Below are positions 20,684 through 36,806 of a stretch of 64,000 bases of DNA, one piece after another. The number at the start of each line of letters is the position of its first letter. Within the stretch, counting starts at the first letter, position 1. This DNA is from Limnohabitans sp. JirII-31 (GTDB lineage Bacteria; Pseudomonadota; Gammaproteobacteria; Burkholderiales; Burkholderiaceae_C): NCBI RefSeq assembly GCF_002778315.1, contig NZ_NESA01000004.1, positions 62,001-126,000 on the forward strand. The letters run 5' to 3'. The position numbers and the translations under genes were made by a program. The notes beneath the pieces were generated by a model. That model was not told the DNA's origin. It saw only the letters and a list, made by a program, of their open reading frames with translations, and ran no database searches.

Positions 20684-20736
20684 TGCAGCGCAACTGCACT
20701 ATCGTGCATTTCGATTCGAAATTGCATTAAAGTGCA
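20684..20736. promoter_or_regulatory. TGCA repeat cluster upstream of boxR (putative BoxR operators)
   Basis: Five TGCA tetramers lie at 20684, 20695, 20705, 20723 and 20733. Two pairs have exactly 10-bp spacing, giving TGCACTATCGTGCA (20695-20708) and TGCATTAAAGTGCA (20723-20736). The last site ends 3 nt before the boxR ATG. Repeated TGCA is what I recall for operators of the BzdR/BoxR family, so autoregulation of boxR is likely. Confidence 0.7.
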
Positions 20737-20739
20737 GGC

Positions 20740-21630
20740 ATGTCACCCGCAGACGACGACACCAACCGCCACCCTTTTCTCACCACCTTGGGTGAGCGCG
20801 TGCGCACCTTGCGTGCGCGTCGTGGACTCACGCGGCGCGCGGTGGCGCAAGCGGCTCATGTGTCGGAGCGGCACCTGGCCAACCTAGAGTCGGGCACCGG
20901 CAACGCCTCCATCCTGATCTTGTTGCAGGTCGCACAAGCCTTGCAATGCTCGATTTTTGAGTTGTTGGGTGATGTGACCACCTCGTCGCCCGAGTGGCTG
21001 CTGATTCGTGAGCTGCTGAGCACCCGCAACGAGGCTGAACTGCGCCGTGTTCGCCTGCAACTGGGTGAGATGTTTGGCAGCCATGGGGATGAAAAAGCAC
21101 GCAGCAACCGCATTGCCCTGGTGGGCTTGCGCGGTGCTGGCAAGTCCACCCTCGGCCAGCGCTTGGCCGATGATTTGGGCTTTCCGTTCATTGAGCTGAG
21201 CCGTGACATCGAAAAGTTTGCCGGCTGCAGCATCAGCGAAATCCATAACCTGTATGGCACCAACGCCTACCGCCGTTATGAGCGACGGGCCTTGGAAGAG
21301 GCGATTCAAATTTACCCCGAGGTCGTGATTGCCACCCCGGGTGGCTTGGTGTCGGACTCTGCCACCTTCAACGAAGTGCTCACGCATTGCTTCACCGTGT
21401 GGCTACAGGCCAAGCCCGAAGACCACCTAGGGCGGGTGGCTGCCCAAGGCGACATGCGGCCCATGGCTGGTAGCCCGGAAGCGCTGGAAGATTTGAAGCG
21501 CATTCTGGAGGGCCGCTCAGCCTTTTACGCCAAGGCTGATTTGACGTTTGACACCAGCGCTCAGCCCCTGGATGACAGCTTTTTGGCGCTCCGTACCCAA
21601 ATCCGGCAAGCCCTCAAGTTGCCACTGTAA
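20740..21630 (+). CDS. boxR: BoxR/BzdR-type regulator of benzoyl-CoA catabolism
   Basis: The 296-residue protein fuses an N-terminal XRE helix-turn-helix (about residues 18-75, with LTRRAVAQAAHVSERHLANL) to a C-terminal shikimate kinase-like domain (Walker A GLRGAGKSTLGQRLA at about residue 128). This architecture defines the BzdR/BoxR subfamily, in which the kinase-like domain senses benzoyl-CoA and relieves repression. The gene lies directly upstream of boxCBA on the same strand. TGCA repeats precede both boxR and boxC, so it probably represses itself and the box genes until benzoyl-CoA is present. Confidence 0.92.
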   Translation: MSPADDDTNRHPFLTTLGERVRTLRARRGLTRRAVAQAAHVSERHLANLESGTGNASILILLQVAQALQCSIFELLGDVTTSSPEWLLIRELLSTRNEAELRRVRLQLGEMFGSHGDEKARSNRIALVGLRGAGKSTLGQRLADDLGFPFIELSRDIEKFAGCSISEIHNLYGTNAYRRYERRALEEAIQIYPEVVIATPGGLVSDSATFNEVLTHCFTVWLQAKPEDHLGRVAAQGDMRPMAGSPEALEDLKRILEGRSAFYAKADLTFDTSAQPLDDSFLALRTQIRQALKLPL

Positions 21631-21710
21631 GTACCTACTCTCGTTCGAATCATTGACAGTCAAGGAACCTTAGACAAGGTGCCTGTGCTTTGTCATATTC
21701 AGGGTAAACA

Positions 21711-21767
21711 TGCATAAAAATGCATTTGCGATAATTCAAAACATGCAATATGATGCACATCAATGCA
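21711..21767 (+). promoter_or_regulatory. boxC promoter with 10-bp phased TGCA operators
   Basis: TGCA occurs at 21711, 21721, 21744, 21754 and 21764. These form one TGCAN6TGCA pair (21711-21724) and one triple with exact 10-bp phasing (21744-21767), placing half-sites on one face of the helix. A good sigma-70 promoter, TTGCGA (21726-21731) with a 17-bp spacer and TATGAT (21749-21754), lies between and within them. The triple covers the -10 and start-site region, which suits repression by BoxR. Confidence 0.75.
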
Positions 21768-21810
21768 TTTCAAGCACCTATCGCCCAGCCACTCACCGGA
21801 GACACCTCAC

Positions 21811-23478
21811 ATGAGCAACGCCATCACCGTCGACTACCAAACAGACCCCAGCCAGTACAAGCACTGGCACATGAAGTTTGAAGGCGAAACCGCCACCTTG
21901 CAGCTCAACATCAACGAAGACGCAGGCATTCGCCCGGGCTACAAGCTCAAACTCAACTCGTATGACCTCGGCGTCGACATTGAGTTGCACGATGCCCTGC
22001 AACGCATCCGTTTTGAACACCCCGAAGTCAAGAGCGTGGTGGTCACCAGTCTGAAAGACCGCATCTTCTGTTCTGGCGCCAACATCTTCATGTTGGGCCT
22101 GTCCACGCATGCTTGGAAAGTCAACTTCTGCAAGTTCACCAACGAAACCCGCAACGGCATCGAAGACTCCAGTCGCCACGATGGCCTGAAGTTCATTGCC
22201 GCGGTCAATGGCGCATGTGCCGGCGGCGGCTACGAGTTGGCCTTGGCCTGTGACGACATTGTGTTGGTGGACGACCGTTCCTCCAGCGTGTCTTTGCCCG
22301 AAGTGCCGTTGCTGGGCGTGTTGCCCGGCACGGGTGGTCTGACCCGCGTGACCGACAAACGCAAGGTCCGCCACGACCATGCCGATATTTTTTGCACCAG
22401 CGTGGAAGGTGTGCGCGGCCAACGTGCGGTGGACTGGCGCTTGGTGGATGAAATTGCCAAGCCCGCCAAATTTGCCGAAGCCGTGCAAGCGCGTGCCGAC
22501 CAATACGCGGCCAGCAGCAAACGCCCAGGTGCCGCCGCCACAGGCAAAGGCGTGAAGCTCACACCTTTGAACAAAACCGTGACTGCGGATGCGCTGACTT
22601 ATGAGTACGTGCAAGTGGCGATTGACCGCGCCAAGCGCACAGCCACTTTCACCGTGCATGCGCCCAAGGTGGCGGTCCCGACAACGGTGGAAGGTATTGA
22701 GGCTGCTGGCATCCATTGGTACCCACTGCAAATGGCGCGCGAGTTAGACGACGCCATTTTGAGCATGCGCACCAACGAGCTCGATGTGGGCACTTGGTTG
22801 CTGCGCACCGCTGGTGACGCGCAGCTGGCGCTGCAATCTGATGCCGTGCTGGCACAACACCAAAGCCACTGGCTGGTCAACGAAACACTGGGCATGCTGC
22901 GCCGCACCTTGGCACGCATTGACGTGTCGTCCCGCTCTTTGTTTGCGCTGGTGGATGAAGGCTCTTGCTTTGTCGGCACCTTGGCCGAGTTGGCATTTGC
23001 CGCTGACCGCACCTACATGCTGGCCTTGCCTGATTCGCCCGACACAGCGCCACGCATGGCCTTGAGCGAGCTCAACTTTGGGCACTTCCCCATGGTCAAC
23101 CACCAGTCGCGTTTGCAACGCCGCTTTTACGAAGAAGTCACGCCGCTGGAACACGTGCGCGCAGCAGTGGGTCAAATGCTCGATGCGGACCAAGCGCTGG
23201 CCCTGGGCTTGGTCACCGCAGCACCCGACGATATCGACTGGGCCGATGAAATCCGCATCGCCGTGGAAGAGCGTGCTGCCATGTCGCCCGACAGCTTGAC
23301 GGGCCTCGAAGCCAATTTGCGTTTCTGCCAAAAAGAGTCGATGGAAACCCGCATTTTTGGACGTCTGTCGGCATGGCAAAACTGGATCTTCAACCGCCCC
23401 AACGCCGTTGGCGAAAAGGGTGCCCTCAAGGTCTACGGCAAAGGCGAGAAAGCCGCCTTTGACTTGAACCGCGTCTAA
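21811..23478 (+). CDS. boxC: 2,3-epoxybenzoyl-CoA dihydrolase (benzoyl-CoA-dihydrodiol lyase) BoxC
   Basis: The ATG at 21811 gives 555 residues, the usual BoxC length, and the GGAG before it supports this start over an ATG at 21763 that lies in the operator region. BoxC is a crotonase-superfamily enzyme with CSGANIFMLG, GACAGGGYELALACDD and LPEVPLLGVLPGTGG. It hydrolytically opens the ring of 2,3-epoxybenzoyl-CoA to 3,4-dehydroadipyl-CoA semialdehyde and releases formate. It is the first structural gene of boxCBA. The formate product makes the adjacent formate dehydrogenase locus meaningful. Confidence 0.95.
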   Translation: MSNAITVDYQTDPSQYKHWHMKFEGETATLQLNINEDAGIRPGYKLKLNSYDLGVDIELHDALQRIRFEHPEVKSVVVTSLKDRIFCSGANIFMLGLSTHAWKVNFCKFTNETRNGIEDSSRHDGLKFIAAVNGACAGGGYELALACDDIVLVDDRSSSVSLPEVPLLGVLPGTGGLTRVTDKRKVRHDHADIFCTSVEGVRGQRAVDWRLVDEIAKPAKFAEAVQARADQYAASSKRPGAAATGKGVKLTPLNKTVTADALTYEYVQVAIDRAKRTATFTVHAPKVAVPTTVEGIEAAGIHWYPLQMARELDDAILSMRTNELDVGTWLLRTAGDAQLALQSDAVLAQHQSHWLVNETLGMLRRTLARIDVSSRSLFALVDEGSCFVGTLAELAFAADRTYMLALPDSPDTAPRMALSELNFGHFPMVNHQSRLQRRFYEEVTPLEHVRAAVGQMLDADQALALGLVTAAPDDIDWADEIRIAVEERAAMSPDSLTGLEANLRFCQKESMETRIFGRLSAWQNWIFNRPNAVGEKGALKVYGKGEKAAFDLNRV

Positions 23479-23524
23479 GCCTGTTATCTACGATTCATCT
23501 GCAAGGTCTAACCAGGAGTTCCAC

Positions 23525-24952
<1,428 letters not shown>

Positions 24953-24976
24953 TTGATTTGCGCTTTAATTCATGCC

Positions 24977-26257
24977 ATGAACGCCACCACCGAACTCATT
25001 CAGCAGCATCTGATCGATCCCGAGATCTGTATCCGATGCAACACCTGCGAAGCCACTTGTCCGGTGGGGGCCATCACGCACGACAGCCGCAACTATGTGG
25101 TGCTCGCAGACAAATGCAATCTGTGCATGGCCTGTGTGCCGCCTTGTCCCACGGGGTCGATCGACAACTGGCGCACCATGCCCAAAGCTGCTGCGTACAG
25201 CGTCGAAGAACAACTGGGTTGGGATGAGTTACCCACAGCGTTGAGCGAGGCCGAGCTTGCGGCCATGGGGGGTGACGTCAGCGCGCAAGACGCTGCACCA
25301 ACCCCCAGTGCGGCATCGGTGGCTTCTGCCACGGCCACTGCGGGTGAGGGCACTGCGTTCAACTCGGGTGCATTCGGCGCCACCGCCCCGCCTTGGTCGG
25401 CCGCCCATCCGTACACCAACTTGCATGGTCCCAAAGCGCCCGTGATGGCCACAGTGGTGGGCAATGTGCAGGTCAACGAGGCTGGCACGGCCAACGAAAC
25501 CCACCACATCGTGCTGGACTTTGGCAACATGCCGTTCCCAGTGTTGGAAGGCCAATCGATTGGCATCATCCCGCCTGGCGTAGACGCCCAGGGTAAGCCC
25601 CACCATGCGCGTCAGTACTCCATTGCCAGTCCACGCAACGGGGAGCGGCCTGGCTACAACAACCTTTCGCTCACTGTGAAGCGGGTGGTGGAAGACCACC
25701 AAGGCCAGGCGGTTCAAGGCGTGGCCTCCAATTACTTGTGTGACTTGAAAACCGGCGACGCCGTGCAGGTGATTGGCCCCTTTGGTGCCAGCTTTCTGAT
25801 GCCCAACCACCCCAAGTCCAACATCGTGATGATTTGCACGGGTACGGGCAGTGCGCCCATGCGTGCCATGACCGAGTGGCGTCGTCGCTTGCGTCAAAGC
25901 GGCAAGTTTGAAGGCGGTAAGCTCATGCTGTTCTTTGGCGCTCGCACCCAACAAGAGTTGCCTTACTTTGGCCCCTTGCAAAAGTTGCCCAAAGACTTCA
26001 TTGATATCCACTTTGCTTTCTCACGCACAGCCGGTCAACCCAAACGCTATGTGCAAGACCTGATGCGCGAGCGCAGCGCCGATTTGGCGCACCTGCTCAA
26101 AGACCCCAACACCTGTTTTTATGTGTGTGGTTTGAAGAGCATGGAAGAAGGCGTGGTCATGACCTTGCGTGACATTGCCAACGAAGCTGGCCTAGGCTGG
26201 GACAACGTGGCACCCGCCTTGAAGCGTGAAGGGCGCTTGCATTTAGAGACCTACTGA
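24977..26257 (+). CDS. boxA: Benzoyl-CoA 2,3-epoxidase, reductase subunit BoxA
   Basis: The ATG at 24977 gives 426 residues starting [12 protein letters not shown]. An N-terminal two-cluster ferredoxin ([12 protein letters not shown] and [12 protein letters not shown]) is joined by an Ala-rich linker (about residues 100-150) to a ferredoxin-NADP reductase module with ARQYSIAS for [15 protein letters not shown] and [13 protein letters not shown] for NADPH. It passes NADPH electrons to BoxB. It is the last box gene seen; no CoA ligase (bclA), semialdehyde dehydrogenase (boxD/boxZ) or benzoate transporter follows. The next gene starts 48 nt later with no terminator between. Confidence 0.95.
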
Positions 26258-26305
26258 GCAAGCCTAGGGTGGCGCGGGGTATGGCTGGCCCGCTAACATC
26301 GCCGC

Positions 26306-26902
26306 ATGAATTCTCGTCCCAGTTTGCAAGTTGCCGTGGTCATGCGTCGTGAACGTGTGCCCGGTGCCATGAGCCAGTGGCAGCCCTGGCGTTGGGTCTT
26401 GCACGATGTGTTGGGCCACGACCTCACGCCACACGCGCAGCACTTTGGCAGCGCACCGCGTTGTTTGCGTCACACCGACGACGAGCAACTGTGGCTGCAC
26501 CCAGGCTTTAAGGTTGAACTGTTTCGCGACGACGCCGAAGGCTACTACCTCAACGCCACCACCCCCGCACCGTGCTGGTTTGTCTTGTGGCGCATGGAAG
26601 AAGAGCCTGCCATCAGTGACCAGGTGATGGCGGTGCCCACCATGGTGAGCCTGAGTTACCACGACGCGGGCCGTTGGTTGGATGCGCAAGAAAACGTTGA
26701 CCAGATCGCTGCTCCCGAAGAGGTGGTGGCCTGGATGGCCGCATTTGCCGAAGAACACTGGGTCGCCGAGGTCAAGCGCCGCAGACGTCCCGACAGTTTC
26801 AAACCTCTGCAAGACCGCTTTGGCAATCCAGCGGCGGTGAGCACCAGCAAATTGCGTGGTGGCGGGCCGGGTTCAGGCAATGGGGGAACACATGGCGAAT
26901 GA
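26306..26902 (+). CDS. DUF3305 protein, formate dehydrogenase-associated
   Basis: This 198-residue protein has the DUF3305 features VAVVMRRERVPGAMSQWQPWRW at the start (as two adjoining blocks) and PCWFVLWRMEE, SLSYHDAGRWLD in the middle. The family has no known function but in betaproteobacteria occurs beside formate dehydrogenase genes, usually followed by DUF3306 as here. No signal peptide or membrane segment is visible, so it is probably cytoplasmic. The C-terminus is Gly-rich and overlaps the next gene by 11 nt. It follows boxA closely, so it may be read from the box promoter as well. Confidence 0.82.
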   Translation: MNSRPSLQVAVVMRRERVPGAMSQWQPWRWVLHDVLGHDLTPHAQHFGSAPRCLRHTDDEQLWLHPGFKVELFRDDAEGYYLNATTPAPCWFVLWRMEEEPAISDQVMAVPTMVSLSYHDAGRWLDAQENVDQIAAPEEVVAWMAAFAEEHWVAEVKRRRRPDSFKPLQDRFGNPAAVSTSKLRGGGPGSGNGGTHGE

Positions 26903-27479
26903 CGACACACCCGCTGGCTTCTTAGGCCGTTGGTCGCGCCGCAAGGCCGAGGTGCGCGAAGGCAAACCTGTGGCTGACCCGGTGCCCGCCAGCGTGCGGG
27001 TGGTGACGCCCGTGCAAACACTCAACGATCCAACGCCTGACCCGCAGACCCAAACGTCTGCCACGCCTGCCACGCCTGCGCCCACCTTGGACGATGTGCA
27101 GTCACTCACCCCCGAGTCTGACTACACACCCTTCATGGCCCGTGGCGTCACGTCGGACGTGAAAAACGCAGCCATGAAAAAACTCTTCACCGATCCTCAC
27201 TTCAATGTGATGGACCGCATGGATGTGTACATCGACGATTACGGTCAACCCGACCCAATTCCTCTGGCCATGCTGCGTCAAATGAATGGCGCCAAGTTTT
27301 TGAACCTGTTTGACGAAGAAACCCAAACGCCCGCAGACGCCCCACCTCAACTCGTGGCACAGTCCGTCCCTGCCCAAACCCTTTCACCCACCGACACCAC
27401 CACGCATGACCACGCTGATTTGCGACTGCAACCAGACCCAACCCCTCGACCCGAAAGCACTGGGCCAGAGCCTGCATGA
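26892..27479 (+). CDS. DUF3306 protein, formate dehydrogenase-associated
   Basis: The start at 26892, after a GGGGGA ribosome site, gives 195 residues beginning MANDDTPAGFLGRWSRRK, the typical DUF3306 opening. A Pro/Thr-rich linker separates it from the conserved core DYTPFMARGVTSDVKNAAMK and FNVMDRMDVYIDDY. The function is unknown. It overlaps DUF3305 by 11 nt and the polyferredoxin gene by 74 nt, which is unusually long for this compact operon. The C-terminal tail encoded in the overlap is low-complexity Pro/Thr/Asp sequence, so the real constraint there is probably on the other frame. Confidence 0.82.
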   Translation: MANDDTPAGFLGRWSRRKAEVREGKPVADPVPASVRVVTPVQTLNDPTPDPQTQTSATPATPAPTLDDVQSLTPESDYTPFMARGVTSDVKNAAMKKLFTDPHFNVMDRMDVYIDDYGQPDPIPLAMLRQMNGAKFLNLFDEETQTPADAPPQLVAQSVPAQTLSPTDTTTHDHADLRLQPDPTPRPESTGPEPA

Positions 27480-29505
27480 AGACCTGACCTTGCACACGGC
27501 CCTGTGCCGTCGTGAAGCGGGCGCTTTTCTCAACGCGGTACAAAGCACCACCGACGAGGTGGTGGTGGCGTGCACGCAAGAGCAGCGCTTGTTTGGTGAC
27601 TTGGCTGCGCAAGCGCAAGCCAAAACTTCGGTCATCAAGTTTGTCAACATCCGCGAAACCGGCGGCTGGAGCCGCGACGCCAAACAAGCCTCGCCCAAAA
27701 TCGCCGCACTGCTGGCCACCGCGCATTTGCCAGAGCCAGAGCCCGTGCCCACCGTCACCTTCAAGAGTGCGGGGCGCTTGCTGATCATTGGCGCCCTGGA
27801 TGCGGCTGAACAAGCGGCGGCCTTGCTCTCGGATGTGCTCAACGTCACTCTTTTTACCCAAGGGCCAGGCGAGGCGGGGGGGGCACAAAGTCGCCGCTAC
27901 CCCGTCTTGGGCGGGCAGGTGCTGCGCGTGGAGGGCTGGTTGGGCGCGTTCAAACTCACCTGGTCCAGCAACAACCCGATCGACTTGGATATGTGCACCC
28001 GCTGCAACGCCTGTGTGGTGGCTTGCCCAGAACAAGCCATTGGCTTGGACTACCAAATTGACCTGAGCAAGTGCCAGTCACACCGCGACTGCGTGACCGC
28101 CTGCGGTGCGGTGGGCGCCATCAACTTCCAGCGTGAGGCCGCGCCAGAAACGGCCGACTTTGACTTGGTGCTCGACTTGCGCGCACACAGCGCCTTCAGC
28201 CGCCACGCGCTGCCGCAAGGTTATTTCCGCCAAGCCGATGCGGCCACCTTGCTGCGCTTGCGCGAGTTGGTGGGCGAGTTTGAAAAACCGCGTTTCTTTG
28301 CCTACAAACAAAAGCTGTGCGCACACAGCCGCAACGAGCAAGTGGGTTGCCGGGCGTGCGTGGACATCTGCTCGGCTGAAGCGATCAGCTCTGAATCCGC
28401 GCGTCAACAGATCAAGGTCAACCCCAACCTGTGTGTGGGCTGCGGTGCCTGCACCACGGTGTGTCCGACGGGCGCTTTGAGCTATGCCTACCCGAGTGCG
28501 CCTGAACAGGGTGTGAAACTCAAAACCCTGCTGAGCACTTACCAACAGGCCGGTGGCCAAGACCCCGTGTTGCTGTTGCACAGCCAAGAGGCGGGTCTTG
28601 CCTTGGTGCATGAGCTGGGCCGTGCGGCCCAGTTGCAGCTGGCCCAGGGCGTGCCCGCGCATGTGATTCCGGTCTCGCTGTGGCACACCGCCAGCCTGGG
28701 GCTGGACGTGTGGCTGTCCGCGCTGGCTTACGGCGCTGCGCAAGTTTTGGTGTTGGTCACCCGCGAAGAAGCACCGCAATACGCCGATGGCTTGCAAGCC
28801 CAAATGAACCAAGCCCAGGCCATGCTCGAAGGTTTGGGCTATGCCTTGCCTGGCCAACCCGTGTTGCAACTGGTGCATGCCACGCAGGCGCTGGAGCTGG
28901 ATGCCGAATTGCAACGTGTGTGCAGTGGCAAACAGCGTCTGCGCTCACGCCTGCCTGTGGCCACCTTTGCCTTGATGAATGACAAACGCAGCAGCTTGAG
29001 CTTGCTGGTCGACCACTTGTTGGAGCATGCACCTGCTTTGAAAGCCAACACGGCACCTGAGGCCTTGAGCCTGCCCGCCGATGGCGCATTGTTTGGCTCG
29101 GTGGACGTGAACAAAGACAGCTGCACCTTGTGCATGAGTTGCGTCAGCGCTTGCCCGGCCAATGCCTTGCAAGACAACCAACAAGCCCCGCAACTGCGCT
29201 TCGTTGAGAAGAACTGCGTGCAATGCGGCCTGTGTGTCACCACCTGTCCTGAAAACGCCTTGCAGTTGGTGCCGCGCTTGTTGCTGACCGCACAACGCAA
29301 AGAGCTGCGCGTGCTCAACGAAACCCAACCCTATGGCTGTGTGCGTTGTGGCAAACCCTTTGGCACGCTCAAGGGCATTGAGGCCATGATGGCCAAACTG
29401 GCGGGACATTCGATGTTCCAAGGCGCGGCGCTGGAGCGCCTCAAAATGTGCGGCGACTGCCGTGTGATTGACATTTATTCCTCGGGTGACGAGCAAAAAA
29501 TCTGA
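27406..29505 (+). CDS. Large multi-cluster 4Fe-4S ferredoxin of the formate dehydrogenase locus
   Basis: I chose the ATG at 27406 (699 residues, MTTLICDCNQ) because the following CDCNQTQPLDP and HTALCRREAGAF blocks look family-conserved. A middle region has CTRCNACVVACP, a Cys pattern ending CVTACG, CRACVDIC and CVGCGACTTVCP; the C-terminal third has CTLCMSCVSACP and CVQCGLCVTTCP plus a final CVRCGKPFG, suggesting about six [4Fe-4S] clusters. Near residues 125-150, LLIIGALDAAEQAAALL resembles a decayed nucleotide-binding loop. It is cytoplasmic by absence of signals. Proteins like this accompany DUF3305/3306 and FDH; a role in electron supply for FDH maturation is inference. Confidence 0.8.
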   Translation: MTTLICDCNQTQPLDPKALGQSLHEDLTLHTALCRREAGAFLNAVQSTTDEVVVACTQEQRLFGDLAAQAQAKTSVIKFVNIRETGGWSRDAKQASPKIAALLATAHLPEPEPVPTVTFKSAGRLLIIGALDAAEQAAALLSDVLNVTLFTQGPGEAGGAQSRRYPVLGGQVLRVEGWLGAFKLTWSSNNPIDLDMCTRCNACVVACPEQAIGLDYQIDLSKCQSHRDCVTACGAVGAINFQREAAPETADFDLVLDLRAHSAFSRHALPQGYFRQADAATLLRLRELVGEFEKPRFFAYKQKLCAHSRNEQVGCRACVDICSAEAISSESARQQIKVNPNLCVGCGACTTVCPTGALSYAYPSAPEQGVKLKTLLSTYQQAGGQDPVLLLHSQEAGLALVHELGRAAQLQLAQGVPAHVIPVSLWHTASLGLDVWLSALAYGAAQVLVLVTREEAPQYADGLQAQMNQAQAMLEGLGYALPGQPVLQLVHATQALELDAELQRVCSGKQRLRSRLPVATFALMNDKRSSLSLLVDHLLEHAPALKANTAPEALSLPADGALFGSVDVNKDSCTLCMSCVSACPANALQDNQQAPQLRFVEKNCVQCGLCVTTCPENALQLVPRLLLTAQRKELRVLNETQPYGCVRCGKPFGTLKGIEAMMAKLAGHSMFQGAALERLKMCGDCRVIDIYSSGDEQKI

Positions 29506-30128
29506 TGACCCAAACAGCCCCCCATCTGTCTTCCGCCCTTGACGAAGAAACTGCCCGTGCCGAGTTGTACGGACTGATCGCCGAGCTGTTTTACGCCTCG
29601 CCTGCGCCTGCCTTGTTGGCGCAGTTGCGTGTGGCTGCCACCGAAGCGCCTGCCTCCGGCGGGTTTTTAGAAGAGCCTTGGCGCGCCCTGGTGGGCACGG
29701 CGCGCGACATGGACGACGCCAGCATCCAGCGCGAGCACGAGGCCTTGTTTGGCGGCGTCGGCAAGCCCGAGGTGTATGTGTATGCCTCGCATTACCTGAG
29801 CGGTTTCCTGAACGAAAAGCCGTTGGCGCAACTGCGCACCGATCTGGCCGCTTTGGGCCTCACGCGCGATGCAGCCTCCATGTCGGAGACCGAAGACCAT
29901 GTGTCTTACCTCATGGAAGTCATGCGTTTTTTGGTGGCGGGTGATGATGTCGCGGTTTCTAACTTGACCCAACAAGCCAAGTTCTTTGCGGCCCATGTTC
30001 AGGCCTGGGTGTTGGGTTTGTGCGATGTCTTGCAAGCCAATCCACGGGCGCGTTTTTACGCCGCCTTGGCTGAACTCACGCGCGCCTTTGTCAGCGTCGA
30101 GACCCAAGGCTTTGACATGTTGGCGTGA
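29505..30128 (+). CDS. TorD/DmsD-like chaperone for formate dehydrogenase
   Basis: The 207-residue helical protein has the TorD-family motif SETEDHVSYLMEVMRFL and an LFYASPAPALL helix near the N-terminus. Such chaperones bind the Tat signal of a molybdoenzyme and hold it until cofactor insertion is complete. Its ATG overlaps the polyferredoxin stop by one base (TGATG). The nearby Tat-exported alpha subunit is the obvious client. No DmsD-specific feature lets me name it more closely. Confidence 0.85.
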   Translation: MTQTAPHLSSALDEETARAELYGLIAELFYASPAPALLAQLRVAATEAPASGGFLEEPWRALVGTARDMDDASIQREHEALFGGVGKPEVYVYASHYLSGFLNEKPLAQLRTDLAALGLTRDAASMSETEDHVSYLMEVMRFLVAGDDVAVSNLTQQAKFFAAHVQAWVLGLCDVLQANPRARFYAALAELTRAFVSVETQGFDMLA

Positions 30129-30218
30129 AGCCTTCAGTCAAAAGGCTTAGAAATAATTTCGCGTTCAGCCGATACCCCATCAACGGGATGGGGCATGACG
30201 TTATTACTTACCAACTTT

Positions 30219-30253
30219 GGTTCTAGAACCATTACAGTATGCAATGTCGTGCA
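30219..30253 (+). promoter_or_regulatory. Control region of the fdh structural operon with TGCAN6TGCA
   Basis: Within the 152-nt gap before the small Tat gene, a 12-bp perfect palindrome GGTTCTAGAACC lies at 30219-30230 and the element TGCAATGTCGTGCA at 30240-30253. The latter has the same TGCAN6TGCA form as the boxR and boxC operators, and its right half plus flank (TCGTGCATATC) closely matches the boxR site (TCGTGCATTTC). It ends 27 nt before the ATG. Hairpins AAGCCTT/AAGGCTT (30128-30148) and CCCCATC/GATGGGG (30175-30193) lie just upstream. Binding by BoxR is a prediction. Confidence 0.55.
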
Positions 30254-30280
30254 TATCCACGACCAGACGAGGAGATCGAC

Positions 30281-30484
30281 ATGAAAAAAGAACAAACCCA
30301 GGCGTCGCGCCGTGGATTTTTTATGGGTGCCGCTGCGGCGGGTGCTGCCGCTGCTGCGGTCACTGCACTGCCCCGCGTGAACCTTCCCACCGAAGTGGCC
30401 GCCTTGAAGCCTGCGCCTGAAAACGGCGGTGGTTACAGCTTGAGCGAACACGTCAAGCGCTACTACCAGACCACCCGCGTCTGA
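30281..30484 (+). CDS. Small Tat-signal protein of formate dehydrogenase operon
   Basis: The ATG at 30281, after a GAGGAG ribosome site, gives 67 residues. The N-terminus has a twin-arginine signal (ASRRGFFMGAAAAGAAAAA), and the short remainder ends GYSLSEHVKRYYQTTRV, matching the FDH-region Tat-target family (TIGR02811-like). It is exported by Tat and probably binds or helps assemble the FDH complex. An earlier in-frame ATG at 30239 lies inside the putative operator and is rejected. The alpha subunit gene starts 33 nt later. Confidence 0.85.
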   Translation: MKKEQTQASRRGFFMGAAAAGAAAAAVTALPRVNLPTEVAALKPAPENGGGYSLSEHVKRYYQTTRV

Positions 30485-30516
30485 GTGACCTGAACCGAAT
30501 TCGCAGGAGTACCTCT

Positions 30517-33483
30517 ATGTTGCTGACCCGTAAATCTGACGCTGCCCAGTCTGGCAGTTCTGGCTTGGTCGACCGCCTGCAGCGCGGTTTGTCGCAAGCG
30601 TTGCCTACTTTGGATCGTCGTGGCTTCTTGCGCCGTTCCGGTCTGGGTGTGGGGGTTGGCTTGGCCGCCACCCAATTGAGTTTGGTGAAAAAAGCCGATG
30701 CAGCCGATGCAGCCAATGCCACCGCAGGCAACGGCACGGGCAAGATTGAAGTCAAACGCACGGTGTGCACCCACTGCTCGGTGGGTTGTGCGGTCGATGC
30801 TGTGGTGGAAAACGGTGTGTGGGTACGTCAAGAACCTGTGTTCGACTCCCCCATCAACTTGGGCGCACATTGCGCCAAAGGTGCGGCCCTGCGTGAGCAC
30901 GGTCATGGTGAATTCCGCCTGCGCTACCCCATGAAGCTGGTCAACGGCAAGTACGAGCGCATCAGCTGGGACACGGCCCTGACCGAAATCAGCGCCAAGT
31001 TGCTAGAGCTGCGCAAAGCCAGCGGTCCTGACTCGATTTACTGGATTGGCTCTTCCAAGCACAACAACGAGCAAGCCTATTTGCTGCGCAAGTTTGTGAG
31101 CTATTGGGGCTCCAACAACTGTGACCACCAGGCCCGTATTTGCCACTCCACCACCGTGGCCGGTGTGGCCAACACCTGGGGTTATGGCGCCATGACCAAC
31201 TCGTACAACGACATGCAAAACAGCAAGGTCGCTCTGTACATCGGCTCCAACGCTGCCGAAGCTCACCCTGTGAGCATGCTGCACATGCTGCATGCCAAAG
31301 AAAACGGTTGCAAGATGATCGTGGTCGACCCACGCTTCACCCGCACAGCGGCCAAGGCTGACGAGTACGTGCGTATCCGTTCGGGCTCGGACATTGCGTT
31401 CCTGTTTGGCCTGTTGCACATCATCTTCAAGAACGGCTGGGAAGATAAGAAATACATCAACGACCGCGTGTTCGGCATGGACAAGGTCAAGGAAGAAGTG
31501 CTGGCCAAATGGTCGCCCGACAAAGTGGAAGAGGTCTGCGGCGTCAAGCCAGACCAGTTGCTCAAGATCGCCACCATGTTGAACGAGCACCGTCCCGGCA
31601 CCATCGTGTGGTGCATGGGTCAGACCCAACACACCACCGGCAACGCCATCGTGCGTGCGTCGTGCATCTTGCAATTGGCTTTGGGCAACGTGGGCAAATC
31701 GGGCGGTGGCACCAACATCTTCCGCGGCCACGACAACGTGCAAGGCGCCACCGATGTGGGCCCGAACCCCGACTCATTGCCCGGTTACTACGGCTTGGTC
31801 GAAGGTGCCTGGAAGCACTTTGCCAAAGCCTGGGGCGTGGACTTTGAGTGGATCAAAGGCCGCTTTGCCAACCCCGGCATGATGAGCAAGCCTGGCATCA
31901 CCGTCTCGCGCTGGATCGATGGTGTGCTGGAGAAGAACGAACTCATCGACCAAGACAGCAACCTGCGCGGCGTTTTCTACTGGGGTCATGCACCCAACTC
32001 GCAGACCCGTGGCTTAGACATGAAGCGCGCCATGGACAAGCTCGACTTGTTGGTGGTGGTCGATCCTTACCCTTCCGCCACGGCGGCCATGGCGGCCATG
32101 CCCGGCAAGGCTGAAGACCTCAACCCCAACCGCGCGGTGTACCTGCTGCCTGCGGCCACACAGTTTGAAACCAGTGGTTCGGCCACGGCCTCAAACCGCT
32201 CGCTGCAATGGCGTGAGAAAGTGATCGAGCCCCTGTGGGAGAGCCGTTCAGACCACATGATCATGTACCAATTTGCCGAAAAACTCGGCTTTGGCAAGGA
32301 GCTGGTCAAGAACTACAAGCTGCAAAAAGTCAACGGCATGGACGAGCCCATGGTGGAAGACATCTTGCGTGAAATCAACAAGTCGGTTTGGACCATTGGC
32401 TACACCGGCCAAAGCCCAGAGCGCTTGAAGGCGCACATGCGCAACATGCATTTGTTTGACGTCAAGACCTTGAAGTCAAAGGGTGGCAAAGACAAAGAAA
32501 CCGGTTACGACTTCGGCGGCGACTACTTCGGTCTGCCCTGGCCTTGCTACGGCACACCTGAACTCAAGCACCCTGGCTCGCCCAACCTGTACGACACCTC
32601 CAAGCACGTCATGGACGGCGGCGGTAACTTCCGCGCCAACTTTGGTGTGGAACGTGAAGGCAAGAACCTATTGTCTGAAGACGGCTCTCATTCGTTAGGT
32701 GCTGACATCACCACCGGCTACCCCGAGCTTGATCACGTGCTGCTCAAGAAGCTGGGTTGGTGGGATGAACTCACCGATGCCGAAAAGGCGTTGGCTGAAG
32801 GCAAGAACTGGAAGACCGACAACTCAGGCGGCATGATCCGCGTGTTCATGCAAAACCATGGCTGCCACCCGTTTGGCAACGCCAAGGCCCGCGCTGTGGT
32901 GTGGAACTTCCCAGACCCCATCCCGCAACACCGCGAGCCTTTGTATGGCACGCGTCCTGACCTGGTGGCCAAGTACCCCACGCACGACGACAAGAAAGCC
33001 TTCTGGCGCCTGCCCACCTTGTACAAAACCGTGCAAGACAAAAACGTGGCCGACAAGGTGCACGAGAAGTTCCCGCTCATCCTCACCTCGGGCCGTTTGG
33101 TCGAGTACGAGGGCGGTGGCGAAGAAACCCGTTCCAACCCCTGGCTGGCTGAGTTGCAACAGGAAGCCTATGTCGAGGTGCATCCCAAGACGGCGGCGGA
33201 TCGCGGCATTCGCAACGGCGAACGTGTGTGGCTGCATAGCCCCACGGGCGCACGTCTGAATGTGCAGGCCTTGGTGACCGAGCGTGTCGATACCGGCACG
33301 GTGTGGATGCCTTTCCACTTCTCGGGTCGTTGGCAAGGTGCCGACATGCTGGCGCATTACCCCAAAGGGGCCGCGCCCATTGTGCGTGGCGAGGCGGTCA
33401 ACACCGCCACCACCTACGGTTACGACAGCGTGACCATGATGCAAGAGACCAAGACCACGGTCTGCAACCTCGAACGCGCTTGA
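30517..33483 (+). CDS. fdhA: Formate dehydrogenase alpha subunit, periplasmic molybdo/tungsto-enzyme
   Basis: The 988-residue catalytic subunit has a Tat signal (LDRRGFLRRSGLG, Arg34-Arg35), an N-terminal [4Fe-4S] site (Cys84, Cys87, Cys91, Cys119) and the active-site segment QARICHSTTVAG, in which Cys209 (TGC codon) replaces the selenocysteine of FdnG; His210 follows. The rest is the bis-MGD-binding DMSO-reductase fold. It oxidises formate to CO2 in the periplasm and passes electrons through the beta and gamma subunits to quinone. Metal identity (Mo or W) is not readable. Substrate formate may come from BoxC activity. Confidence 0.94.
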   Translation: MLLTRKSDAAQSGSSGLVDRLQRGLSQALPTLDRRGFLRRSGLGVGVGLAATQLSLVKKADAADAANATAGNGTGKIEVKRTVCTHCSVGCAVDAVVENGVWVRQEPVFDSPINLGAHCAKGAALREHGHGEFRLRYPMKLVNGKYERISWDTALTEISAKLLELRKASGPDSIYWIGSSKHNNEQAYLLRKFVSYWGSNNCDHQARICHSTTVAGVANTWGYGAMTNSYNDMQNSKVALYIGSNAAEAHPVSMLHMLHAKENGCKMIVVDPRFTRTAAKADEYVRIRSGSDIAFLFGLLHIIFKNGWEDKKYINDRVFGMDKVKEEVLAKWSPDKVEEVCGVKPDQLLKIATMLNEHRPGTIVWCMGQTQHTTGNAIVRASCILQLALGNVGKSGGGTNIFRGHDNVQGATDVGPNPDSLPGYYGLVEGAWKHFAKAWGVDFEWIKGRFANPGMMSKPGITVSRWIDGVLEKNELIDQDSNLRGVFYWGHAPNSQTRGLDMKRAMDKLDLLVVVDPYPSATAAMAAMPGKAEDLNPNRAVYLLPAATQFETSGSATASNRSLQWREKVIEPLWESRSDHMIMYQFAEKLGFGKELVKNYKLQKVNGMDEPMVEDILREINKSVWTIGYTGQSPERLKAHMRNMHLFDVKTLKSKGGKDKETGYDFGGDYFGLPWPCYGTPELKHPGSPNLYDTSKHVMDGGGNFRANFGVEREGKNLLSEDGSHSLGADITTGYPELDHVLLKKLGWWDELTDAEKALAEGKNWKTDNSGGMIRVFMQNHGCHPFGNAKARAVVWNFPDPIPQHREPLYGTRPDLVAKYPTHDDKKAFWRLPTLYKTVQDKNVADKVHEKFPLILTSGRLVEYEGGGEETRSNPWLAELQQEAYVEVHPKTAADRGIRNGERVWLHSPTGARLNVQALVTERVDTGTVWMPFHFSGRWQGADMLAHYPKGAAPIVRGEAVNTATTYGYDSVTMMQETKTTVCNLERA

Positions 33484-33496
33484 AGGAGCAACAACC

Positions 33497-34123
33497 ATGG
33501 CCCGCATGAAATTTATCTGTGACGCAGAGCGTTGCATCGAGTGCAACGGTTGCGTGACCGCTTGCAAGAACGAACACGAAGTACCTTGGGGCGTGAACCG
33601 CCGCCGCGTGGTGACCTTGAACGACGGTGTGCCCGGCGAAAAGTCGATCTCGGTGGCCTGCATGCACTGCTCCGATGCACCTTGCATGGCGGTGTGCCCC
33701 GTCAACTGTTTTTACAAAACCGACGAGGGCGTCGTGCTGCACGACAAAGACGTCTGCATCGGCTGCGGCTACTGTTCGTACGCGTGTCCCTTTGGTGCTC
33801 CTCAGTTCCCTTCGCAGGGCACCTTCGGTGTGCGCGGCAAGATGGACAAGTGCACCTTCTGCGCGGGTGGTCCAGAAGCCAACGGCAGCCAAGCCGAATT
33901 TGAAAAATATGGTCGCAACCGTTTGGCCGAAGGCAAGCTGCCAGCGTGCGCTGAAATGTGTTCGACCAAAGCCCTGCTCGCCGGTGACGGCGACGTGGTG
34001 GCCGACATCTTCCGCAACCGCGTGGTCAAACGCAACAAGGGTGCTGAAGTGTGGGGCTGGGGCACTGCTTATGGTTCCAAACAAGCAGGTCAAAAACTCG
34101 CTGCTGAAGGAGTCAAAAAATGA
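33497..34123 (+). CDS. fdhB: Formate dehydrogenase beta (iron-sulfur) subunit
   Basis: The 208-residue protein has four Cys groups of the FdnH/HybA type: CIECNGCVTAC, CMHCSDAPCMAVC, CIGCGYCSYAC and CTFC with a later CAEMC, enough for four [4Fe-4S] clusters. It is shorter than E. coli FdnH and lacks its C-terminal membrane helix. It has no signal peptide and probably crosses the membrane by hitchhiking on the Tat-exported alpha subunit. AAGGAG precedes the ATG; the stop overlaps the next gene by ATGA. Confidence 0.92.
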   Translation: MARMKFICDAERCIECNGCVTACKNEHEVPWGVNRRRVVTLNDGVPGEKSISVACMHCSDAPCMAVCPVNCFYKTDEGVVLHDKDVCIGCGYCSYACPFGAPQFPSQGTFGVRGKMDKCTFCAGGPEANGSQAEFEKYGRNRLAEGKLPACAEMCSTKALLAGDGDVVADIFRNRVVKRNKGAEVWGWGTAYGSKQAGQKLAAEGVKK

Positions 34124-34353
34124 TGTCGCGTACTTCGCTGTTGACCGTGTTGGCTGTGGCCAGCGTGGCGGGCTTGAGCGCTTGTGGTGAGAAGCCACAA
34201 ACCCTGGGCACCAAAAATGACGCCACCGCCTTCAGCGGTGTGACCAACGCCTTCGTGGCACCAGGCTGGCAAGCCGGTGACAAGAACAGCTGGGAGCAGC
34301 ACCTGCGTGCGCGCGCGCAATATGGCATGAACGACAACACACGCGCACCGTGA
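34120..34353 (+). CDS. Small lipoprotein in formate dehydrogenase operon
   Basis: This 77-residue protein starts with a lipoprotein signal ending in the lipobox LSAC (Cys about residue 22), so it should be anchored in the outer or inner membrane facing the periplasm. The mature part of about 55 residues includes FVAPGWQAGDKNSWEQHLRAR. I know no domain for it. It overlaps fdhB by ATGA and lies between beta and gamma subunit genes, so it is probably an accessory or structural part of this FDH type. The ATG is doubled (ATGATG); either may start. Confidence 0.72.
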   Translation: MMSRTSLLTVLAVASVAGLSACGEKPQTLGTKNDATAFSGVTNAFVAPGWQAGDKNSWEQHLRARAQYGMNDNTRAP

Positions 34354-34367
34354 ACCAGGGGCACACC

Positions 34368-35519
34368 ATGTCACGTTCTATTCAATCGGTGTTGTGTGCG
34401 GTGTTGACGGTGCTTGCACTGTCAGCCGACGCGCAAGACAAAGCGGCAGCACCTGTCGCTGCCACAGCGCCTGCCGTGCAGAGCGTCAACATCCAAGACG
34501 TCAAACCCGACGCCAGCGATGCACCTGGTTACGCTGACCAAACCAACGCTGAGCGCAGCAAAGTGCAGCCAGGCAACAACGCGCCCATGTGGCGTGATGT
34601 GGGCAAAGGGGTTGCAGGCTACAGCAGCTTGCCCAAAGAAACCGCGCCTGAAGCAGGTGTGTTGATTCAGCCCTTTGTGCAATATCCCGGATCGCGTGTG
34701 ACCAATGCGGGTGAGGCTTGGCGACAAGTGCGCAACCAGTGGCTGATTCCTTATGGTGGTTCGTTGCTGTTGATTGTGGCAGGTGCGATTGCCGTTTTCT
34801 TTTGGCGCAAGGGCGCGATTGCCATGCACGGCAAGCCCACGGGTCGCGAGATCGAGCGCTTCACCCCGTTCGAGCGCTCCGCGCACTGGGCCAACGCGAT
34901 TGCGTTTGTGGTGTTGGCCATTTCTGGTTTGACCATGGCCTTTGGCAAGTTTGTGTTGCAACCCATCATCGGTGACACCTTGTTTGGTTGGCTCACCTAC
35001 TTGCTGAAAAACGCCCACAACTTTGCGGGGCCGTTGTTTGCTGTGTCTTTGGTGGTGGTGTTCGTCACCTTCTTGAAAGACAACATGCCACGCAAAGGCG
35101 ACCTGAACTGGTTGCTCAAAGGCGGCGGTATTTTGAGCGGTCACGAAGTGCCCTCACACCGCTTCAACGCGGGTGAAAAACTGGTGTTCTGGGGTGGCGT
35201 GTTCTTCTTGGGTGCGGTGGTGGTGGCGTCAGGTTTCGTGCTTGACAAAATCGTCCCTGGCTTGATTTACGAACGCGGCACCATGCAAGTGGCGCACATG
35301 GTCCACGCCGTGGCCACGGTGTTGATGATGGCCATGTTCATGGGACACATCTACATTGGCACCATCGGTATGGAAGGCGCCTACAAAGCCATGAAGACCG
35401 GCTATGTGGATGAAACCTGGGCCAAAGAACACCACGAACTTTGGCATGCCGACATCCAAGCAGGCAAAATTCCTGCGCACCGCAGCCCCGAAGCACCTGG
35501 CTCGACGGCACAGGCTTGA
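34368..35519 (+). CDS. fdhC: Formate dehydrogenase gamma subunit, cytochrome b556
   Basis: The ATG at 34368 has AGGGG upstream and gives 383 residues with a signal peptide (LCAVLTVLALSADA) and an N-terminal periplasmic extension of about 100 residues absent from FdnI. Four later membrane segments carry candidate heme-b ligands in FERSAHWANAIAF, NAHNFAGPLF and HMVHAVATVLMMAMFMGH. It anchors the complex and reduces quinone. A GTG at 34350 is an alternative start. The odd N-terminal extension is Ala/Pro-rich and may contact the lipoprotein or alpha subunit. Confidence 0.92.
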   Translation: MSRSIQSVLCAVLTVLALSADAQDKAAAPVAATAPAVQSVNIQDVKPDASDAPGYADQTNAERSKVQPGNNAPMWRDVGKGVAGYSSLPKETAPEAGVLIQPFVQYPGSRVTNAGEAWRQVRNQWLIPYGGSLLLIVAGAIAVFFWRKGAIAMHGKPTGREIERFTPFERSAHWANAIAFVVLAISGLTMAFGKFVLQPIIGDTLFGWLTYLLKNAHNFAGPLFAVSLVVVFVTFLKDNMPRKGDLNWLLKGGGILSGHEVPSHRFNAGEKLVFWGGVFFLGAVVVASGFVLDKIVPGLIYERGTMQVAHMVHAVATVLMMAMFMGHIYIGTIGMEGAYKAMKTGYVDETWAKEHHELWHADIQAGKIPAHRSPEAPGSTAQA

Positions 35520-35535
35520 TCTCAGGAGAATTTCT

Positions 35536-35871
35536 ATGAACAAAAACCTCATTGCACTCATCCTGGCTGGCCTGAGTGCTGGCGCATTGGCCAAGTTACC
35601 TGCGCCCAGCGACGAAGCCAAGGCCAAAGCCGCCGAAGCCGCCGCCAAGACGGCACATGCAGGCAAGGTGGACGGCTACTTGCTGTGCAAGTCGCAAGAC
35701 AAAGTGGCGGCTCATGTGCAAAAGACCAACAAGTCCAAAGCCGGCAAGCCTGTCGCCACCGCGCCTTGTGCGGACCCTGGCAAGTTTGTCTACACACCGC
35801 CTGAAGCGGCCCCTGTAGCCGCCGCCGCTGCACCTGCCGCCGCTCCTGCTGCTCCCGCCAAAAAATCTTAA
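35536..35871 (+). CDS. Small secreted protein, Ala/Pro-rich tail, FDH operon
   Basis: The ATG at 35536 follows CAGGAG and gives 111 residues. A signal peptide (LIALILAGLSAGALA) is followed by a Lys/Ala-rich helical part, a short core with two Cys residues (LLCKSQD and APCADPGKF), and an Ala/Pro-rich tail ending AKKS. No domain is recognised. It is the last gene before the terminator at 35897, so it belongs to the FDH operon; a periplasmic stabilising role is a guess. Confidence 0.75.
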   Translation: MNKNLIALILAGLSAGALAKLPAPSDEAKAKAAEAAAKTAHAGKVDGYLLCKSQDKVAAHVQKTNKSKAGKPVATAPCADPGKFVYTPPEAAPVAAAAAPAAAPAAPAKKS

Positions 35872-35896
35872 ATCCATCACAGCTTGGCTGTGCATC

Positions 35897-35926
35897 GGGC
35901 CGCACCTGTGGGTGGCGGCCCGTTTT
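35897..35926 (+). terminator. Intrinsic terminator of fdh structural operon
   Basis: GGGCCGC (35897-35903) pairs with GCGGCCC (35915-35921), extended by ACC/GGT with one bulge, and is followed by GTTTTG. It separates the secreted-protein gene from fdhD, which starts 17 nt later, so fdhD may depend on read-through or its own promoter. Confidence 0.65.
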
Positions 35927-35942
35927 GTTGTAGCCTGCACCT

Positions 35943-36806
35943 ATGTCTGTTGTTTTGAACCTTCCCCATCTCACCCAAGCCCAAACGCCCTTGACCCGCG
36001 AGGTCAGCGTGCTCAACGAGCATGGGGAGCGCAGCATGGCGTCTATTCCGGCTGAGCGTGCGCTCACGGTGTATGTGGACAAGCGAGAGATCGTCACCCT
36101 CATGACCTTGGGCGCGCACCCCGAGTTGCTGGTGCTGGGCTATTTGCGCAACCAACGTTTGGTGGGCGCGGCTCATGAGGTGGCATCCATCACGGTCGAT
36201 TGGGACGCGGGTGAGGGTGGCGCTGGCGTGGCCGCTGTCAAAACGCATGCGGGCATTGCCGATATCCAGGCGCGCACTGCACACCGCGTGGTCACCACCG
36301 GTTGCGGACAAGGCAGTGTGTTTGGTGACTTGATGGACGAGATCGACACCCTGGTGCTGCCCGATGCGCAGTTGGGCCAAGCCCGCCTGTACGCCATCTT
36401 GAACGCCATTCGTCTGCAAGAGAGCACTTACAAATCGGCTGGCTCGGTGCATGGTTGTGCTTTGTTCGATGGCGAAACTTTGCAGGTGTTTGTGGAAGAC
36501 GTGGGTCGCCACAATGCCATTGACACCATTGCGGGCTGGATGTGGATGCATGGCGTGGTGTCGGGCCCTGCATCAAGTTTTTACACCACCGGTCGCCTGA
36601 CCAGCGAGATGGTGCTGAAGTCGGCCCAGATGGGGGTGCCCGTGGTCATCTCGCGCAGTGGCATCACGCAAATGGGCTACGACCTGGCCGAGCGCCTGGG
36701 GCTGTGCACTTTGGGCCGTGCCACCAACAAACACTTCTTGGTCTACACCGCGCCACAGCGTGTGCAGCTCGACCCCAGCTTGGCCCAGCGCAGGGAGGCG
36801 GCATGA
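35943..36806 (+). CDS. fdhD: Formate dehydrogenase accessory sulfurtransferase FdhD
   Basis: The 287-residue protein aligns by eye with FdhD, which moves sulfur from IscS to bis-MGD so that FDH becomes active. Blocks include GCALFDGETLQVFVEDVGRH (as GCALFDG and VEDVGRHNAIDTI) and FYTTGRLTSEMV. The catalytic loop reads TTGCGQGSVFG: Cys121 is present but the partner of the usual CxxC, position 124, is Gly. The subfamily with CGQG may work with one cysteine. It follows the FDH operon terminator and overlaps the permease gene by ATGA. Confidence 0.93.
   Translation: MSVVLNLPHLTQAQTPLTREVSVLNEHGERSMASIPAERALTVYVDKREIVTLMTLGAHPELLVLGYLRNQRLVGAAHEVASITVDWDAGEGGAGVAAVKTHAGIADIQARTAHRVVTTGCGQGSVFGDLMDEIDTLVLPDAQLGQARLYAILNAIRLQESTYKSAGSVHGCALFDGETLQVFVEDVGRHNAIDTIAGWMWMHGVVSGPASSFYTTGRLTSEMVLKSAQMGVPVVISRSGITQMGYDLAERLGLCTLGRATNKHFLVYTAPQRVQLDPSLAQRREAA

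What the first reader, a model, noticed from the sequence alone, without database searches (positions are those of the whole stretch)
20740..36806. Benzoyl-CoA ring cleavage genes linked to a complete periplasmic formate dehydrogenase locus
boxR-C-B-A is followed, on the same strand and without a terminator after boxA, by the full set for a Tat-exported formate dehydrogenase, its chaperone, accessory proteins and FdhD. BoxC is known to release formate when it opens epoxybenzoyl-CoA. The arrangement suggests a module in which the formate carbon lost in ring cleavage is respired for energy. I do not know of this link being described as a dedicated system.
Basis: partly seen in the sequence, partly recalled or inferred. 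Interest (0 to 1): 0.85.

Follow-up and report, generated by a model that had tools for sequence, protein, structure and literature searches.

The report
Benzoate-ring genes beside formate dehydrogenase
In this freshwater bacterium the genes that open the benzoate ring sit directly before a respiratory formate dehydrogenase, a pairing that recurs in related bacteria, but the dehydrogenase stands at the same chromosomal site in relatives that lack the ring-opening genes, so it does not look like a dedicated module.

Summary
boxRCBA (20740-26257) is followed 48 bp on, same strand, by a complete FDH3-type Tat-exported formate dehydrogenase locus (26306-36806). Linkage exceeds chance: FDH3 lies within 20 kb of boxA in 18 of 97 family genomes holding both, always downstream on the same strand (about 0.9 expected, uncorrected for relatedness). 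An NAD-linked formate dehydrogenase does so in 16 of 108.

The 'dedicated module' reading is not supported. FDH3 stands at the site metG | apbC > FDH3 without box there in 41 genomes classed, with box in 22. In the nearest congeners apbC runs straight into the FDH3 genes. The fdhX region carries a BoxR-like palindrome, but so do all 7 congeners lacking BoxR and BoxA, against 6 of 15 with BoxR. A promoter-like element precedes DUF3305. The NAD-linked enzyme and the benzoate-CoA ligase are on other contigs.

Formate dehydrogenase consuming BoxC formate is already in print for other arrangements (PMC6449761, PMC4782131). New here is the recurrent box-FDH3 order at one site; most likely a loose metabolic partnership.

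The parts
17355..19502 (-). metG (methionyl-tRNA synthetase); left landmark of the conserved site
   Evidence: Pfam PF09334; same place in relatives with and without box
19566..20672 (+). apbC/mrp-type Fe-S carrier; directly before FDH3 in several relatives without box at the site
   Evidence: Pfam PF10609; synteny
20695..20736 (+). two TGCA-N6-TGCA BoxR-type sites before boxR
   Evidence: motif described in PMC6449761
20740..21630 (+). boxR, repressor
   Evidence: NF006015, 445 bits
21711..21767 (+). three TGCA-N6-TGCA BoxR-type sites before boxC
21763..23478 (+). boxC, 2,3-epoxybenzoyl-CoA dihydrolase, releases formate
   Evidence: TIGR03222, 970 bits; PDB 2w3p, 923 bits
23525..24952 (+). 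boxB, benzoyl-CoA epoxidase subunit
   Evidence: TIGR03225, 896 bits
24953..26257 (+). boxA, benzoyl-CoA epoxidase subunit
   Evidence: TIGR03224, 738 bits
26294..26299 (+). TAACAT, -10-like element 12 nt before the DUF3305 start; equivalents in box-FDH3 relatives
   Evidence: consensus match only
26306..26902 (+). DUF3305 protein, formate dehydrogenase locus accessory
   Evidence: PF11749, 161 bits
26892..27479 (+). DUF3306-like protein
   Evidence: translation; conserved place in the loci; family name recalled, not scanned
27406..29505 (+). multi-cluster 4Fe-4S protein (ORF opens at 27310; ATG at 27406)
   Evidence: PF00037 and others; start choice
29505..30128 (+). TorD-family chaperone
   Evidence: PF02613; NF003442 below cut-off
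30240..30253 (+). palindrome TGCAATGTCGTGCA in the fdhX promoter region
   Evidence: present in congeners with and without BoxR
30281..30484 (+). fdhX, 67-aa Tat-target protein of formate dehydrogenase regions
   Evidence: TIGR02811, 43.1 bits, under its cut-off of 48.45
30517..33483 (+). fdhA, catalytic subunit with Tat-like signal; Cys209-His210
   Evidence: (PDB 9vap chain A, 1269 bits)
33497..34123 (+). fdhB, FDH3 beta Fe-S subunit
   Evidence: NF038355, 342 bits, cut-off 240
34123..34353 (+). small ORF, 76 aa, lipoprotein-like start; overlaps the ends of its neighbours
   Evidence: lipoprotein reading recalled, not tested
34350..35519 (+). fdhC, cytochrome b subunit
   Evidence: TIGR01583, 156 bits, cut-off 115.85
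35536..35871 (+). small secreted-looking protein found beside FDH3 in relatives
   Evidence: no NCBIfam match; tblastn matches in several loci
35943..36806 (+). fdhD sulfurtransferase
   Evidence: NF001943/TIGR00129, below cut-offs

Best explanation
A BoxR-controlled boxRCBA operon occupies, in some Burkholderiaceae (here a Limnohabitans-type genome), the gap between apbC and a general-purpose FDH3 formate dehydrogenase locus that stands at the metG-apbC site with or without box. Mechanism: BoxR represses box until benzoyl-CoA is present (inducer recalled); BoxAB and BoxC open the ring and BoxC releases formate in the cytosol (known for these families). The formate is oxidised mainly by the cytosolic NAD-linked FdhBA (inferred) and, after leaving the cytosol as formic acid or by an unidentified carrier, by the periplasmic FDH3, which passes electrons through FdhB and FdhC to quinone (inferred from the families). 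FDH3 is expressed from its own promoters (inferred from sequence elements), so the neighbourhood is a loose metabolic partnership favoured by shared formate, not a dedicated co-regulated module.
For: Genes confirmed. FDH3 within 20 kb of boxA in 18 of 97 genomes holding both, all downstream on the same strand, in 10 genera. NAD-linked FdhA within 20 kb in 16 of 108 box+ genomes that have it, 15 downstream on the same strand. Presence tracks box: FdhBA 108 of 146 box+ and 26 of 80 box-; FDH3 97 of 146 and 49 of 153. FDH3 at apbC without box there in 41 genomes, box upstream of FDH3 in 22, of those classed. Of 9 congener loci shown without box at the site, 7 have only 11-23 bp between apbC and DUF3305, stop codon counted. 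At least 9 changes of 'box at site' on the FdhA tree of 61 rows. A TAC/TAA-NN-T element within 95 nt before DUF3305 in 21 of 22 loci with box, 8 of 11 with FdhBA only, 6 of 29 with apbC class 'direct'. Kinase/sigma-54 regulator in the FDH3 locus of many relatives.
Against: The enrichment, and the presence of both FDH types next to box in different genera, could reflect tighter coupling than 'loose'. The 48-bp gap without a terminator-like site allows read-through from boxCBA into the maturation genes. The fdhX palindrome matches the flanks of the published BoxR consensus, and such a site also precedes the benzoate-CoA ligase on contig C1. Promoter-like elements are consensus matches only. That FdhBA does most of the work is inference. 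No expression data.
Confidence: 0.65

Rival explanations
1. Dedicated module: box and FDH3 are one co-regulated unit that respires the formate lost in ring cleavage, at least in Limnohabitans, through read-through from boxCBA and a BoxR site at fdhX.
For: 48-bp gap without terminator-like site; TGCA-N6-TGCA at fdhX in G000, G260 and G338, which have box directly before FDH3; of 80 named boxA loci, 22 have FDH3 genes downstream and 2 more have FdhBA then FDH3.
Against: The palindrome is in 7 of 7 congeners with neither BoxR nor BoxA but in 6 of 15 with BoxR; an eighth genome without a BoxR match, G317, has it too but has box genes on that contig. In the family sample it is absent in the 650 bp before fdhA in 16 of 18 linked genomes. 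FDH3 is kept where box is absent. A -10-like element precedes DUF3305 where box is upstream.
Confidence: 0.17
2. Positional hitch-hiking: box landed at, or was exchanged by recombination into, the metG-apbC-FDH site and is inherited there with no functional tie to formate dehydrogenase.
For: apbC lies upstream of box in 12 of 13 linked loci whose upstream could be read, metG in 11, although neither has to do with formate; the site is kept with and without box.
Against: FDH presence tracks box genome-wide (uncorrected). FdhBA lies 3.2-3.3 kb from boxA in G290 and G044, where no apbC was found in the 4.0 and 6.6 kb read before boxR. FdhBA near box in two Azoarcus strains (PMC6449761).
Confidence: 0.2

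Closest known systems
FdhBA (COG1894/COG3383) near the box operon in Azoarcus sp. EbN1 and BH72 (PMC6449761; passages read)
   Same: Formate dehydrogenase genes beside box genes, proposed to oxidise BoxC formate; BoxR sites with 6 nt between TGCA.
   Different: There FdhBA, which I take from the COG numbers to be the NAD-linked type, follows the lactonase gene of the box cluster and may be co-transcribed (in BH72 too far for that); here it is an exported FDH3 type behind boxA, and the NAD-linked pair is on another contig.
FDH3-type periplasmic formate dehydrogenase locus (NF038355 beta subunit)
   Same: Same subunits, Tat-target protein, chaperone and Fe-S accessory genes; FdhB over the curated cut-off.
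   Different: In the relatives classed it more often follows apbC or fdhBA (41 genomes against 22 with box); here boxRCBA stands between apbC and the locus.
BoxC formate and formate dehydrogenase in SAR324 bins (PMC4782131; passages read)
   Same: Formate from aromatic degradation proposed to feed formate dehydrogenase and the electron transport chain.
   Different: Distant bacteria; the passages read state no linkage of the genes.
MeFDH1-type two-subunit NAD-linked formate dehydrogenase (PDB 7vw6, 7e5z; organism name recalled)
   Same: Closest solved relatives of the FdhA on contig C7, which was the query that found FdhA between box and FDH3 in relatives.
   Different: Not in the window; cytosolic by family, not tested.

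Membership tests
box (aerobic benzoyl-CoA epoxidation) gene cluster | BoxA, BoxB and BoxC over curated cut-offs | tested here: met
   TIGR03224, TIGR03225 and TIGR03222
box (aerobic benzoyl-CoA epoxidation) gene cluster | BoxR with TGCA-N6-TGCA sites | tested here: met
   NF006015; 2 sites before boxR, 3 before boxC
box (aerobic benzoyl-CoA epoxidation) gene cluster | usual but not defining (PMC6449761 says genes may be missing): benzoate-CoA ligase in the same cluster | tested here: not met
   the only ligase over the cut-off is on contig C1; boxD was not searched
FDH3-type formate dehydrogenase | FDH3 beta subunit over cut-off | tested here: met
   342 bits, cut-off 240
FDH3-type formate dehydrogenase | Tat-like signal on the catalytic subunit and Cys/Sec-His pair | tested here: met
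   DRRGFLRR and Cys209-His210 read; meaning of both motifs recalled, no signal predictor run
FDH3-type formate dehydrogenase | formate oxidation linked to quinone | not testable with these tools
   no assay
Dedicated box-formate dehydrogenase module | FDH3 found only, or nearly only, with box | tested here: not met
   49 of 146 FDH3+ genomes lack box; 41 sites without box
Dedicated box-formate dehydrogenase module | fdh under BoxR control | tested here: inconclusive
   palindrome at fdhX but also in 7 of 7 congeners with neither BoxR nor BoxA; no binding data
Dedicated box-formate dehydrogenase module | linkage above chance | tested here: met
   18 of 97 against about 0.9 expected, not corrected for relatedness

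The most novel reading that the evidence does not exclude
Selection repeatedly brings box clusters next to formate dehydrogenases (FDH3, FdhBA or both in series), making a 'ring-cleavage plus formate oxidation' island at the metG-apbC site and elsewhere; in Limnohabitans BoxR, or a factor reading the same palindrome, acts on the fdhX promoter so that formate lost in ring cleavage is respired in the periplasm.
Probability: 0.2. Interest if true: 0.6.

Novelty: new variant of a known kind. Interest (0 to 1): 0.42.

Why it matters
If formate from BoxC is respired, one of the seven carbons of the benzoyl group yields extra energy or NADH that helps pay for the epoxidation, in freshwater bacteria. 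The comparison also offers a natural experiment: congeners with and without box at an otherwise matching FDH3 site.

Tried and rejected
BoxR control of fdhXABC: the TGCA-N6-TGCA palindrome at 30240 looked telling at first, but 7 of 7 congeners with neither BoxR nor BoxA carry it and 6 of 15 with BoxR do, so it was dropped as evidence for BoxR. G317 also carries it; it has no BoxR match but has box genes on its FDH contig, so it was left out of the 7.

Gene calling by longest ORF in GC-rich loci failed because of antisense ORFs; replaced by tblastn with window, L001 and L009 proteins. A first attempt at the fdhX promoters read many loci on the wrong strand or from a wrong start; redone.

I first called the NAD-linked pair FdsBA; searches show a MeFDH1-like alpha subunit and a beta subunit with NuoE- and NuoF-like parts, so it is FdhBA here (scripts and notes say Fds).

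A class-wide search for recurrence found BoxA in 5 of 369 genomes, 2 of them in the family, so recurrence outside the family was not measured; no FDH match was seen in the three other box loci fetched (L105-L107, 19-20 kb each), with queries from this family only.

Gain or loss of box at the site could not be told apart: the change counts do not depend on the root. The box tree and the FDH tree disagree in places (for example G070/G254 and G087/G264), which allows transfer; both are quick trees and long branches were flagged.

Rows left out; 80 of 153 box- genomes, picked by hand roughly in handle order, leaving out several of low completeness (for example G008, G040, G102). FDH3 upstream regions of 40 of 79 unlinked genomes with both, and 20 of 49 FDH3-only genomes, besides three of these. 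could not class 36 genomes ('?' 29, 'fds?' 7), many cut by contig ends. G208, a BoxA fragment under the cut-off, is counted as box+. G278 is among the 18 linked genomes, but there metG and apbC lie between box and FDH3, and it is classed without box at the site. Other formate dehydrogenase types were not searched. One search kept the best 80 of 466 matches.
Full report
What is there. The window holds, on the + strand, boxR, boxC, boxB and boxA (20740-26257) and, 48 bp on, a full FDH3-type formate dehydrogenase locus: DUF3305, a DUF3306-like protein, a 4Fe-4S protein, a TorD-family chaperone, a 67-aa Tat-target protein, FdhA, FdhB, FdhC and FdhD. FdhA has a Tat-like motif and a Cys-His pair at 209-210; its best match among solved structures is PDB 9vap, a formate dehydrogenase FdhA (1269 bits). 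BoxC matches the solved benzoyl-CoA-dihydrodiol lyase 2w3p (923 bits). FdhD and the 67-aa protein are recognisable but under the curated cut-offs. The organism is of the Limnohabitans type: G260, of the same genus code, has a contig of the same length (572,966) and the same BoxA place as Limnohabitans sp. B9-3.

Is it more than chance. In 299 genomes of the family, BoxA was found in 146 (145 over the cut-off and one fragment, G208) and the FDH3 beta subunit in 146; 97 have both. In 18 of these 97 the two lie within 20 kb, always with FDH3 downstream on the same strand; the next nearest pair on one contig is 105 kb apart. At a flat 4.5 Mb about 0.9 would be expected. The 18 fall in 10 genera and are not independent. 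In one of them, G278, metG and apbC lie between box and FDH3. An NAD-linked formate dehydrogenase (FdhBA, closest to the MeFDH1 type) lies within 20 kb of BoxA in 16 of the 108 box+ genomes that have it, 15 downstream on the same strand. Either enzyme is near box in 28 of 146. Among the 80 best-matching BoxA loci of named records, 22 have FDH3 genes in the downstream stretch held, 3 have FdhBA, 2 have both, 31 have neither in over 9 kb, and 22 have neither but are too short to say. Limnohabitans, Tepidicella, Serpentinimonas, one Rhodoferax and one Polaromonas record show FDH3; 10 Variovorax and 4 Curvibacter loci with the full stretch do not.

Co-occurrence. FDH3: 97 of 146 box+ and 49 of 153 box- genomes. 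FdhBA: 108 of 146 box+ and 26 of 80 box-. Either: 116 of 146 and 31 of 80. These counts are not corrected for relatedness. Thirty box+ genomes have neither; other formate dehydrogenase types were not searched.

The site tells against the module idea. Reading upstream of FDH3, the order metG | apbC > FDH3, or metG | apbC > fdhBA > FDH3, occurs with no box at the site in 41 of the genomes that could be classed, against 22 with box upstream of FDH3 (36 more could not be classed). Of 16 linked loci fetched further upstream, 13 were readable; apbC precedes box in 12 of them and metG in 11. So box lies between apbC and FDH3 where present, and the unrelated genes metG and apbC are kept with FDH3 too. 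Within the genus, G345 and G353, whose FdhA stretches are 99% and 97% identical to the window's, have apbC running into DUF3305 with a short gap and no box there; G353 has BoxA on another contig, none was found in G345. In G346 box and FDH3 lie 1.4 Mb apart on a single contig. On the FdhA tree of 61 rows the state 'box at site' changes at least 9 times. The trees cannot say whether these are gains or losses.

Regulation. TGCA-N6-TGCA, the main form of the published BoxR motif (PMC6449761, passages read), occurs twice before boxR, three times before boxC, once before fdhX, and twice elsewhere in the window: 8 in all, where 6.3 are expected by chance. A site lies at the start of the benzoate-CoA ligase on contig C1, so the ligase may be under BoxR although far away. 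The fdhX palindrome, however, is present in 7 of 7 congeners with neither BoxR nor BoxA and in 6 of 15 with BoxR. In the family sample it is absent in the 650 bp before fdhA in 16 of 18 linked genomes; six of the other 58 loci outside this genus scanned there have such a site at varying places. It looks like an FDH promoter element of this genus rather than a mark of BoxR. Before DUF3305, every one of 28 distinct boxA-DUF3305 gaps holds a TA-NNN-T match: 15 at -12 (TACTAT, TACCAT, TAAGAT, and TAACAT in the window), 3 at -15, 1 at -17 and 9 at -39 to -67. The pattern is loose, but the place is fixed in the Limnohabitans-type loci. A TAC/TAA-NN-T match within 95 nt before DUF3305 is found in 21 of 22 loci with box, in 8 of 11 with FdhBA only, and in 6 of 29 of the apbC class; none of the 7 congeners with the short apbC-DUF3305 gap has one. 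A TCATTGGTAC block seems shared by DUF3305 and fdhX upstream regions of some congeners (by eye, not tested). In many relatives a sensor kinase and a sigma-54-type response regulator stand between torD and fdhX, a sign of FDH's own control.

How it most likely works. BoxC releases formate (stated in PMC6449761 and PMC4782131) in the cytosol (recalled). This genome has an NAD-linked FdhBA on contig C7 and no FocA-type formate channel by PF01226. The simplest reading is that FdhBA takes most of the formate inside the cell and FDH3 oxidises formate that leaves the cell or comes from outside. Neighbourhood and co-occurrence fit a shared-metabolite partnership; they do not show dedication.

Prior art. 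PMC6449761 (passages read) proposes that the BoxR regulon of Azoarcus EbN1 might include FdhBA and that it may oxidise BoxC formate. PMC4782131 (passages read) links formate from aromatic degradation to formate dehydrogenase in SAR324. The listings seen (titles and starts of abstracts, some lists capped) show no paper on FDH3 next to box in Limnohabitans or its relatives; most subscription journals are not in that library.

Noticed in passing
   Followed up: partly
L009:8116-11649 (-) and equivalents in L006-L014, L019: Sensor kinase and sigma-54 response regulator between torD and fdhX in many FDH3 loci, not in the window's. Perhaps the FDH3 regulator; signal unknown.
   Followed up: partly
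30235-30258 and congeners L127-L149: A palindrome TATGCA-N6-TGCATA at the fdhX promoter is kept in congeners without BoxR; its reader is unknown.
   Followed up: yes
gap before DUF3305 in L182, L185, L191-L194: Inverted repeat CCAATGA...TCATTGG next to a -10-like TACTAT or TACCAT before DUF3305 in Limnohabitans-type box-FDH3 loci (by eye); not seen in the window.
   Followed up: no
L125:1498-3063: The only benzoate-CoA ligase over the cut-off is on contig C1, with a TGCA-N6-TGCA site at its start: the box pathway is split in this genome.
   Followed up: partly
L023:3647-8416: In congener G184, without BoxA, a 1589-aa ORF on the opposite strand lies between apbC and FDH3, another guest at the same site.
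   Followed up: no
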